The notes under the pieces were generated by a model. It saw only the letters and a list, made by a program, of their open reading frames with translations. It was not told the origin of the DNA and did no database searches. Shown one piece after another: positions 91 to 13,997 of a stretch of DNA of 52,324 bases (within the stretch, counting starts at the first letter, position 1; every line of letters begins with the position of its first letter). This DNA is from Longimicrobium sp. Its GTDB lineage: Bacteria; Gemmatimonadota; Gemmatimonadetes; Longimicrobiales; Longimicrobiaceae. The position numbers and the translations under genes were made by a program. The stretch spans positions 1-52,324 of the forward strand of contig DASVWD010000102.1 in assembly GCA_036389795.1 (NCBI GenBank), given 5' to 3'.

Positions 91-132
91 CCTTTTCAGG
101 GCTGATACCCGAACGATTCCCTGCGAAATGGT

Positions 133-175
133 ATGAGACATTCGGTTATGGATCTCGATCCCGAACGAGCCTCGC
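133..175. repeat. Dispersed repeat, copy 1 (partner at 50607)
   Basis: The segment reads CATTCGGTTATGGATCTCG followed by ATCCCGAACGA. A closely matching segment lies at 50607-50650 in the same orientation (CATTCCGTTACGGATCTCG, ATTCCGAACGA). Both lie beside the 3' end of a leftward gene. Function is unknown. Confidence 0.6.
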
Positions 176-188
176 AGTCCGCACAGGG

Positions 189-225
189 AGCGCCCCCGCG
201 CCGATGCTGCCGGCGCGGGGGCGCT
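189..225 (-). terminator. Terminator-like hairpin downstream of the beta-barrel gene
   Basis: A perfect 14-bp stem (AGCGCCCCCGCGCC at 189-202 with GGCGCGGGGGCGCT at 212-225) with a 9-nt loop lies 34 bp past the stop of the leftward gene ending at 259. There is no clear U-tract, so its strength is uncertain. Confidence 0.55.
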
Positions 226-258
226 TCGTGTTCGGGAGACTTTCCGCCTGCCGGGCGG

Positions 259-11948: not shown

Positions 11949-11985
11949 GCGGCCTCTCCGGTCATCCCGGGAGGCCGCTCTTGTT
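11949..11985. terminator. Terminator hairpin between DUF5335 and Abi_2 genes
   Basis: A GCGGCCTC / GAGGCCGC stem with a further CCGG/CCGG pairing inside is followed on the + strand by TCTTGTT. It lies at the meeting point of two convergent genes. Confidence 0.6.
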
Positions 11986-12737
11986 CACCTCTTCGCTCCG
12001 AAGTACGCTTCGGCCCGAGGGCGATACGCGTCCGGGCCCGCGTTGAAGACAGGCTCCAGCACGGACTCGGCACGCACGACTCGCTCGACGCTCTGGTTCA
12101 TCCACGACAGCGTTTCCAGGATCTTCGCGTGCCAGGTTGTAAGGTCCTGATCCCAGATCGGCTCATGGTGTGAGATTCGGTTCCGAAACTCGCGGATCTC
12201 ATCGAAGCGGTGCAGGATCGCAGGGCGGCTCCGGACGGACCTGGGTGCGAAAACGAAGGTGTGCGTTAGAATCTCCGGCCACAGGCCGGGCCCCGAACGG
12301 CGTGTCTGCTCATAGGGAGACTGGCAGAGCGCGGTCCAGAAACCGAATCCGAGCTGCGCGATCAGTCACCCCGGCGTAAGATTTTTCGTTTGACTACGCT
12401 TGCGAAGCCGTTCCTTCGCCTCCTCGACCGTAGCCTGTTCGCGTGGCATCAGCAGCGGCGGCGTTGCGTCAAGCCAGCATGGAATGTCAGCGAACGCGAG
12501 TGAACGGCCGCTCAGCACCTTGAGGGACCCGCTGTAGAGCACGTTGCGGAAGGTGATTTCCAGCGCGTGCAAGGTCGGATGGAATGCGCATGACAGCGCC
12601 ACATTCCAGAAGTACCGCGCAACCATGTCCAGGTCGTCGGCATCCGCGGCTGTGCGGTACGCGTCCAGGCGCTCGATGGAGAACGCGTGGTAGATCGCGT
12701 GGAGGGAAAGGGGTTGTTCTGAACCGGCTTTGGGCAT
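11985..12737 (-). pseudogene. Abi_2 (AbiD/AbiF-type, HEPN) gene with one in-frame TGA
   Basis: Read leftward, 123 codons (from ATG 12737) are followed by TGA at 12366-12368 and then, in the same frame, 126 more codons to the stop at 11985. The first part carries the Abi_2 N-terminus (LDAYRTAADADD, ARYFWNVALSCAFHPTLHAL, EITFRNVLY). The part after the TGA carries the rest: LIAQLGFGFWTALCQ, IREFRNRISHHEPIW and ILETLSWMN. RNRISH fits the HEPN RNase motif R-x4-H, so the product made before the TGA lacks the predicted catalytic motif. Frame and homology continue unbroken across the TGA, so it is a nonsense change (for example from CGA), not a frameshift. Abi_2 proteins are linked to phage abortive infection. 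Base composition is visibly less GC-rich than neighbours, suggesting transfer. A sequencing error or readthrough could still give a 250-residue protein. Confidence 0.8.
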
Positions 12738-12812
12738 AAATTGGAGGCGTAATTCCTCGGGTCGTCCTCTGCTGGAGCAGTCGCCTTCGGGTGCGGCATG
12801 ACGCCGAGGTTG

Positions 12813-12845
12813 GAATCCCCGCGACGAGCCTCGTCGCGGGGATTC
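12813..12845. other. Perfect 15-bp hairpin in the Abi_2 leader
   Basis: GAATCCCCGCGACGA pairs perfectly with TCGTCGCGGGGATTC across a 3-nt loop. It lies between the candidate promoter (12908-12936) and the ATG at 12737 of the leftward Abi_2 gene. No U-tract follows on the minus strand; TGCGTTTCTG follows on the plus strand. It may be a structured leader, a noncoding RNA or a leftover terminator of a lost rightward gene. Confidence 0.6.
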
Positions 12846-12907
12846 TGCGTTTCTGCCCTGCCCCCGCTCACCGAGCGCTCTCCTTGGGAAAGCCCCTGGC
12901 CGCGGAT

Positions 12908-12936
12908 ATTATACGCCCTAACATGAGAAATGTAAA
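12908..12936 (-). promoter_or_regulatory. Candidate sigma-70 promoter for the Abi_2 gene
   Basis: On the minus strand TTTACA (12931-12936) is followed after exactly 17 bp by a perfect TATAAT (12908-12913), in an AT-rich island within GC-rich DNA. The predicted start near 12900 gives a leader of about 160 nt that includes the perfect hairpin. Confidence 0.7.
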
Positions 12937-13049: not shown

Positions 13050-13099
13050 TTGACGTGGTGAGTGGCATCTGCGCATAGTCCTGGTGCCATTTGCGCAAA
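13050..13099 (+). promoter_or_regulatory. Promoter and repeated operator of the Xre-RES operon
   Basis: TTGACG (13050-13055) is followed after 18 bp by CATAGT (13074-13079). Two direct repeats, TGGCATCTGCGCA (13063-13075) and TGCCATTTGCGCA (13085-13097), are 22 bp apart start to start, about two helical turns. The second contains the palindrome TTTGCGCAAA. They overlap the -10 region, as expected for an autoregulating antitoxin. Confidence 0.6.
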
Positions 13100-13109
13100 G
13101 GACGACGAC

Positions 13110-13535
13110 ATGCACGCGATTGCGGAGAAGCTCGGGGGAGCCAGGGTGCTCCAGAGAGACATCCGGTCGGACCTGGAGCTCGCCGAGGTGATCCACGCCG
13201 GGTTCCCGATCCGCGTCGTGGACTTCGTCCTCAAGGCCGGGCTCCTGGACGCTTCCGAGCTGTACGGCTTGGTCATCCCGCGGCGGACGCTCGCCCATCG
13301 GAAGGAGAAGCAGAACACCCTGTCGCGGGAGCAGTCCGACCGCCTGGCGCGCGTGGTTCGCGTACTGGTGCGCGCGGAAGAGGCGCTGGGCACGGTGGAG
13401 AAGGCGGCGCGCTGGCTGCGCAAGGAGAACCGCGCGCTCGGCGGAAAGCGGCCCATCGAGCTGCTGGAGAGCGACACGGGCGCGCGGGTCGTCGAGCGGA
13501 TCCTCGGCCGGATCGAGCACGGCGTCTACAGCTGA
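13110..13535 (+). CDS. Xre/MbcA/ParS-type antitoxin
   Basis: A 141-residue protein starting at the ATG behind AAAGGA. The C-terminal half holds the DUF2384 toxin-binding region: SREQSDRLARVVRVLVRAEEALG, cut here, then AARWLRKENRALGGKRPIEL and a final VERILGRIEHGVYS. The N-terminal half (LELAEVIHAGFPIRVVDFVL) is the helical DNA-binding part of this family. It should bind and neutralise the RES toxin encoded 6 bp downstream and repress the operon through the TGCGCA repeats upstream. Order (antitoxin first) and spacing are typical. Confidence 0.88.
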   Translation: MHAIAEKLGGARVLQRDIRSDLELAEVIHAGFPIRVVDFVLKAGLLDASELYGLVIPRRTLAHRKEKQNTLSREQSDRLARVVRVLVRAEEALGTVEKAARWLRKENRALGGKRPIELLESDTGARVVERILGRIEHGVYS

Positions 13536-13541
13536 CCCCGG

Positions 13542-13997
13542 ATGCGCGTCTGGCGGATCACCAGGCGACCGTTCCAGGCGCTGGACGGAGAGGGCGCCCG
13601 CCTGAACGGCGGGCGCTGGAACTCCGAGGGCGTGGCGGTCGTGTACACCTCCTTCGCGCTCTCCCTCGCCGCGCTGGAGTACCTGGTGCACGTCGACGTC
13701 GAAGAAGCGCCGGCCGACCTCGTGGCGCTGGAGATCGACGTGCCGGACGACGTGCCCGCGGACGAGGTCCGGCTCGACGATCTGCCCGAGGACTGGAACC
13801 GGGTCGAGGACCACCCCGCCTGCGCCTCCATCGGCGACCGCTGGGTTCGGGACGGCAGGGCGCTGGTGCTCCGCGCGCCTTCCGCCGTCATTCCCCACGA
13901 ATCCAACTACCTGCTGAACCCGAAGCATCCCGACGCTGCGCGGATCAGGGTTGTCTCCGTGCGGGACTTCGTCTTCGATCCCCGCCTGCTGGAGTGA
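13542..13997 (+). CDS. RES-domain toxin (NAD+-degrading type)
   Basis: A 151-residue protein with RES family landmarks: MRVWRITRRPF at the start, the GARLNGGRWNSEG motif with its conserved Arg, YTSFALSLAALEYLVH with Ser and Glu, and SNYLLNPKHP near residue 128. Family members in Xre-RES modules deplete NAD+ by phosphorolysis or hydrolysis and arrest growth. The gene lacks a strong ribosome site and starts 6 bp after the antitoxin stop, which suggests translational coupling. It appears intact. Confidence 0.9.
   Translation: MRVWRITRRPFQALDGEGARLNGGRWNSEGVAVVYTSFALSLAALEYLVHVDVEEAPADLVALEIDVPDDVPADEVRLDDLPEDWNRVEDHPACASIGDRWVRDGRALVLRAPSAVIPHESNYLLNPKHPDAARIRVVSVRDFVFDPRLLE

What the first reader, a model, noticed from the sequence alone, without database searches (positions are those of the whole stretch)
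11985..12737. Abi_2/HEPN defence-type gene interrupted by a single in-frame TGA
The two halves of an Abi_2 protein read in one continuous frame across a lone TGA at 12366-12368; the HEPN-like RNRISH motif lies after it. Either the defence RNase has been silenced by one point change beside an intact RES toxin module, or the TGA is read through (the following base is C, a context that can be leaky). A silencing nonsense mutation in an abortive-infection toxin is a plausible sign of self-toxicity or of lost phage pressure.
Basis: partly seen in the sequence, partly recalled or inferred. Interest (0 to 1): 0.72.

Follow-up and report, generated by a model that had tools for sequence, protein, structure and literature searches.

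The report
Silenced RNase toxin beside divergent RNA
A bacterial anti-virus RNA-cutting toxin gene has been cut short by one stop codon, but a small structured RNA gene read in the opposite direction beside it, probably the toxin's safety catch, is intact, and in related bacteria this RNA is often kept after the toxin is damaged or lost.

Summary
Confirmed, on the minus strand: a 250-codon ORF (12737 to 11985) has one TGA at codon 124, before the HEPN motif RNRISH. The protein is PD-T4-5/Abi_2-like (PADLOC E 9e-20). No compared relative has a stop there; close ones carry Arg. The C-terminal half has no usable start codon, and no selenocysteine machinery was found. Best reading: a recent inactivating nonsense mutation; a sequence error is not excluded. 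At least seven relatives in Gemmatimonadota are broken in other ways.

The larger result lies outside the coordinates. Window 12747-12856 (+ strand) is a ~100-nt structured RNA gene, divergent from the toxin, with its own promoter and terminator, absent from Rfam 15. A covariance model finds it in 37 of 395 Gemmatimonadota genomes: 14 places beside intact toxins, 7 beside broken ones, 16 with no toxin remnant, 4 weak. At one toxin-free locus its pairing is kept better than neutral drift predicts. By analogy with AbiF and its RNA antitoxin (8VZ6, Z 11.2) it is probably this toxin's RNA antitoxin in a divergent, single-motif layout. Transcription and neutralisation are inferred, not shown.

The parts
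11985..12737 (-). Interrupted PD-T4-5/Abi_2-type HEPN toxin gene, 250 codons from ATG 12737 to TGA 11985
12366..12368 (-). Premature TGA (codon 124), unique to the window; relatives carry Arg, or Lys/Asn/His
12168..12185 (-). HEPN motif RNRISH (residues 185-190), cut off by the stop
12543..12560 (-). Conserved E60xxxR64N65 in the first long helix (family-invariant E and R), kept in the truncated product
12747..12856 (+). Divergent structured RNA gene (model R1 match, 87 bits), candidate RNA antitoxin
   Evidence: not in Rfam 15
12813..12853 (+). Terminator of the RNA: near-perfect hairpin 12813-12845, then TGCGTTTC
   Evidence: equivalent + strand-type terminators in relatives. The simple scan of the window itself did not call it
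12714..12742 (+). RNA promoter: TTGTTC (12714-12719), 17 nt, TAAATT (12737-12742); its -10 overlaps the toxin start codon
   Evidence: same columns as TTGCGY-N17-GATACT in intact, broken and toxin-free loci
12908..12936 (-). Strong sigma-70-like promoter TTTACA-N17-TATAAT facing the toxin; not seen in 15 relatives
13062..13535 (+). Intact Xre/MbcA/ParS-type antitoxin (true start may be the internal ATG at 13111)
13542..13997 (+). Intact RES-domain (ParT) toxin

Best explanation
The locus is an RNA-controlled HEPN toxin of the PD-T4-5/AbiF branch whose toxin half has been switched off. Shown: the TGA removes the catalytic RNxxxH helix; the gene is otherwise free of lesions; an RNA with conserved structure, promoter and terminator lies divergently beside it and is intact. 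Inferred: when intact, the toxin is a dimeric HEPN RNase held inactive by this RNA and released on phage infection, as in AbiF with AbiFr/RCd22; the TGA abolishes that function in this strain. Inferred from comparison: the window is an early stage of a repeated path in which the toxin decays (stop, frameshift, deletion, loss) while the RNA gene stays.
For: Toxin identity: PADLOC PD-T4-5 in 14 of 14 family members. The model of an intact relative (pLDDT 74.5, pTM 0.72) matches PbAbiF bound to ncRNA (8vz6) at Z 11.2 over 202 of 238 residues; the next rows are HEPN toxins at 5.6. Inactivation: C half has no start codon giving 60 aa or more; all 14 family-invariant residues are kept; 11 of 49 conserved positions differ, evenly 5/24 before and 6/25 after the stop, against 9/58 for the most divergent intact Gemmatimonadota row. 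RNA: 92.3% of cells paired, 11 pairs with double changes, 0/500 shuffles; 37/395 genomes, E to 1e-30. Divergent strand: terminators on the RNA strand, with the C. difficile AbiF control on the toxin strand, and a fixed-position promoter kept even where the toxin is gone. Decay series. Structure kept in toxin-free copies.
Against: No transcript, protein or read data. Foldseek alone gave no significant match, and Z 11.2 is below the level regarded as safe for helical bundles. Core pairs at three places would be G-U on the toxin strand and A-C on the RNA strand, so the strand rests mainly on terminator, promoter and wobble in the other helices. Three toxin-free RNA copies lack the promoter. That the RNA binds this protein is analogy only.
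Confidence: 0.72

Rival explanations
1. The TGA is a base-calling or assembly error in a draft genome, and the toxin is intact.
For: One single-base difference from a sense codon in an otherwise clean ORF with all family-invariant residues kept; draft of 285 contigs.
Against: Substitution errors are rarer than indels in draft assemblies (own knowledge); several sister loci are plainly broken, so inactivation is common here.
Confidence: 0.12
2. The TGA is read through (leaky UGA-C or selenocysteine), making a small amount of full-length toxin under control.
Against: No relative has a stop there; relatives have Arg, not Cys; no better-than-shuffle stem-loop; the tRNA-Sec match is tRNA-Ser; no SelB over cut-off.
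Confidence: 0.04
3. The RNA is read on the toxin strand as a structured leader of the toxin mRNA, as in AbiF/RCd22, not as a divergent gene.
For: The bulge side matches the Rfam abiF motif topology on that strand; 51 G-U against 7 A-C in the toxin-strand structure; a strong toxin-strand promoter in the window.
Against: 47 of those 51 G-U cells sit at three positions (two nearly invariant); on the RNA-strand structure it is 34 G-U against 5 A-C. Terminators face the other way; the promoter on the RNA strand is kept in toxin-free loci; the toxin-strand promoter is absent from 15 relatives.
Confidence: 0.12
4. The RNA is not an antitoxin but an antisense regulator of toxin translation or an unrelated sRNA that hitchhikes with the toxin.
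For: It would overlap the leader of a toxin mRNA started at the 12908-12936 promoter; toxin-free copies keep their structure.
Against: Conserved secondary structure with compensatory change is more than antisense pairing needs; the family shares the AbiF fold, whose partner RNA binds protein (PMC12373285).
Confidence: 0.2

Closest known systems
PD-T4-5 (Vassallo 2022, PMC9519451), plasmid-borne E. coli abortive-infection gene, a distant AbiF/D relative
   Same: Same profile family; single HEPN gene
   Different: Here interrupted by TGA; the divergent RNA gene is not mentioned in the passages read of that paper
AbiF with ncRNA RCd22/AbiFr (PMC12373285; review PMC12737573; PDB 8VZ6), type III-like toxin-antitoxin
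   Same: AbiF fold (Z 11.2), RNxxxH, structured RNA next to the toxin start with its own terminator
   Different: RCd22 is on the toxin strand, has two abiF motifs (RF03085) and is co-transcribed through a terminator. Here one motif, opposite strand, own promoter, no RF03085 match
Type III toxin-antitoxin systems (ToxIN, AbiQ)
   Same: Protein RNase with a probable RNA antitoxin
   Different: No repeat array, different toxin fold, divergent RNA
Orphan antitoxins of type II systems (own knowledge)
   Same: Antitoxin kept after toxin loss
   Different: Here the kept part is an RNA

Membership tests
PD-T4-5 | Match to the PADLOC PD-T4-5 profile | tested here: met
   E 9e-20; 14 of 14 relatives
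PD-T4-5 | Intact open reading frame | tested here: not met
   TGA at codon 124: a pseudogene of the family, unless a sequence error
PD-T4-5 | Abortive-infection activity against phage | not testable with these tools
   needs phage assays
AbiF RNA-HEPN toxin system (type III-like) | RNxxxH HEPN motif | tested here: met
   RNRISH, residues 185-190, invariant R185 and N186; beyond the stop
AbiF RNA-HEPN toxin system (type III-like) | AbiF fold | tested here: met
   intact relative: 8vz6 Z 11.2, 202 of 238 aligned, far above the next row (5.6); Foldseek E not significant
AbiF RNA-HEPN toxin system (type III-like) | Structured RNA next to the toxin start | tested here: met
AbiF RNA-HEPN toxin system (type III-like) | RNA on the toxin strand, co-transcribed, terminator between RNA and toxin | tested here: not met
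   terminator and promoter on the opposite strand
AbiF RNA-HEPN toxin system (type III-like) | Rfam abiF motif (RF03085), often repeated | tested here: not met
   no RF03085 match up to E 1 in the window or E 5 in 18 loci; the model does find phage phiC2; no tandem repeat
AbiF RNA-HEPN toxin system (type III-like) | RNA neutralises the toxin | not testable with these tools
   needs co-expression
Selenoprotein / programmed UGA read-through | tRNA-Sec and SelB in the genome, stem-loop after UGA, Cys or UGA in relatives | tested here: not met

The most novel reading that the evidence does not exclude
A so far undescribed RNA family encodes divergently transcribed antitoxins for the PD-T4-5 branch of AbiF-like (Cas13-ancestor) HEPN toxins, and in Gemmatimonadota these RNAs are repeatedly kept by selection after the toxin dies, as stand-alone RNAs that protect against incoming toxin-bearing elements or serve another regulator role.
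Probability: 0.35. Interest if true: 0.78.

Novelty: new variant of a known kind. Interest (0 to 1): 0.58.

Why it matters
The TGA alone would be an ordinary pseudogene. The RNA gives a testable partner for PD-T4-5, a defence gene so far treated as a single protein, and shows that AbiF-fold toxins, regarded as ancestors of Cas13, may carry their RNA in a divergent layout with its own promoter. The series intact toxin, broken toxin, RNA alone within one phylum allows the question of why an RNA antitoxin outlives its toxin to be tested.

Tried and rejected
Selenocysteine and stem-loop-driven read-through. A recurrent stop at the same column: the TGAs flagged are terminal stops. A natural split of the gene near residues 85-105, suggested by half-length hits: inspection shows separate deletions and frameshifts. 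Toxin-strand reading of the RNA, first assumed and then dropped. Rfam families. Close DNA copies of the gene: none; the DNA search instead exposed the RNA. Searches with no result: and (no relatives; alignment too diverse; no solved structure by sequence; the two rows are chance). A weak second R1 match at window 111-235 (16.8 bits, E 0.005) rests mostly on the terminator hairpin and is taken as chance.

Full report
Observation. The reported stretch codes on the minus strand. It reads from ATG 12737 to TGA 11985 with a single internal TGA at codon 124 (12368-12366). Both halves match single, uninterrupted genes in other genomes. The stop separates the first long HEPN helix (E60xxxR64N65) from RNRISH (185-190).

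What the gene is. PADLOC PD-T4-5 matches at E 9e-20 and matches all 14 family members tested; Pfam Abi_2 is weak for the window copy but reached by 13 of 14 members at E up to 1. An AlphaFold2 model of an intact relative (L120, 11 sequences, pLDDT 74.5, pTM 0.72) has PbAbiF bound to its ncRNA (8vz6) as the clear first match in the second-look alignment (Z 11.2, 3.9 A, 202 residues); the next four rows are HepT-type HEPN toxins (Z 5.4-5.6). Foldseek by itself was not significant, so the fold claim rests on the gap between the first row and the rest plus the shared motif.

The stop. It is absent from every relative compared; the column holds Arg in nine Gemmatimonadota proteins and Lys or Asn in two from Chloroflexota, His in some more distant ones. 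The second half offers no ATG/GTG/TTG ORF of 60 aa or more, so ordinary re-initiation would not make the catalytic part. All 14 residues invariant across the diverse alignment are kept, and departures at conserved positions are spread evenly before and after the stop (5 of 24, 6 of 25). This fits a recent event, or a sequence error, and gives no sign of long decay. Read-through has no support: no stem-loop beyond shuffles, the only match over the tRNA-Sec threshold is tRNA-Ser(UGA), no SelB over its cut-off. Lesions of other kinds occur in relatives: internal deletion plus frameshift (L018), frameshift (L020), loss of the N-terminal part (L021, L024, L030) or the C-terminal part (L026, L029).

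The RNA. A DNA search found that window ~12745-12864 is 75-82% alike beside other copies although the proteins are only 40-49% alike. Aligned (A3), 20 sequences form a long outer stem, two inner stems with a conserved CUCUA/CUCUG-type bulge and a strong hairpin: 92.3% of cells paired, 11 pairs changed on both sides, 0 of 500 shuffles as high, sliding controls near 45%. Rfam 15 has nothing for it, although its abiF model does find the published motif in phage phiC2.

Its strand. On the + strand of the window (opposite to the toxin) the hairpin comes last and is followed by UGCGUUU; relatives show UUGCGUUU, UUUUUUUU and similar. A scan of upstream regions finds terminators facing this way in most PD-T4-5 relatives, including plasmids of Pseudomonadota and Actinomycetota; several are bidirectional and a few face only the toxin. 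The C. difficile AbiF control faces the toxin, as published (PMC12373285). A promoter TTGCGY-N17-GATACT stands at a fixed distance before the RNA in all 14 intact loci, in the broken loci (L020 shifted by one), and in 12 of 16 loci without a toxin (offset up to 2, one with TTT for TTG); the window has TTGTTC-N17-TAAATT in the same columns. By reading the folds, the loop of the inner hairpin is UUCG or a GNRA loop on this strand in most subfamilies. Wobble counts agree for most helices (34 G-U against 5 A-C) but three core positions point the other way. The strand is therefore strongly indicated, not proven.

Distribution. Model R1 finds 41 places in 37 of 395 Gemmatimonadota genomes. By comparison with the protein hits and a permissive HMM search of the flanks: 14 beside an intact toxin, 7 beside a broken one (the window included), 16 without toxin remnant in about 1.5 kb, 4 weak and unclassified. 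Thirteen of the 15 genomes with toxin-free copies... stated exactly: G163, G032 and G273 have a toxin elsewhere, the other 12 have no toxin match at all. Weaker matches sit at the right place and strand in Chloroflexota (E 2e-6 to 5e-4), an Azospirillum plasmid (0.008) and, at chance-level E-values, E. coli pBJ114-141 (0.35) and Comamonas (0.74).

RNA kept without toxin. Pairing in toxin-free copies is close to that beside intact toxins. L078, L080 and L082 share one flank and L077 and L080 the other, so they are one inherited locus. Among them, 8-20 differences left 0 or 1 broken pair where random placement gives 3.6-7.0 (P 0.0002 to 0.05, and below 0.0002 for L080/L082; comparisons not independent). 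This suggests, but does not prove, selection after toxin loss. These copies lie in clusters of protein toxin-antitoxin genes, as the window copy lies beside Xre/RES.

Mechanism. Shown by sequence: dead toxin, intact RNA gene, divergent layout. Inferred: the RNA binds and blocks the toxin as AbiFr/RCd22 do, with release on infection. It works like an AbiF system; it is not filed as a type III system, because the defining co-directional, repeated RNA was tested and not met. One further speculation: a strong promoter facing the toxin is unique to the window, so raised toxin expression may have favoured its loss.

Novelty. The stop is ordinary. The divergent RNA family and its survival without toxin were not found in Rfam 15 or in the papers searched; most subscription papers, including the main AbiF/Cas13 paper, are not held, so prior description cannot be excluded.

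Noticed in passing
window 12936-12908 (minus strand): Near-perfect sigma-70 promoter TTTACA-N17-TATAAT facing the toxin, absent at 15 related loci; raised toxin expression may have favoured inactivation.
   Followed up: partly
L080 698-2159; L061 612-1228: Toxin-free RNA copies sit among protein toxin-antitoxin genes: Phd/YefM + ParE and an HTH gene (L080), RelE + HTH (L061).
   Followed up: partly
L115 (G198) toxin: The invariant Asn of RNxxxH is Ile and a nearby conserved Trp is changed, so this full-length copy may also be inactive.
   Followed up: no
L046 674-757 (own genome, contig C198): Rfam tRNA-Sec model passes its gathering score on what ARAGORN calls tRNA-Ser(UGA); a false-positive trap in this phylum.
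   Followed up: yes
window 111-235 (+): Weak second match to the RNA model, mostly its terminator hairpin (16.8 bits); probably chance.
   Followed up: partly
L056 and L111 upstream regions (Phaeobacter, Yoonia plasmids): Identical RNA-strand terminator hairpin in two genera beside PD-T4-5 relatives next to type IV secretion genes, suggesting recent plasmid transfer.
   Followed up: no
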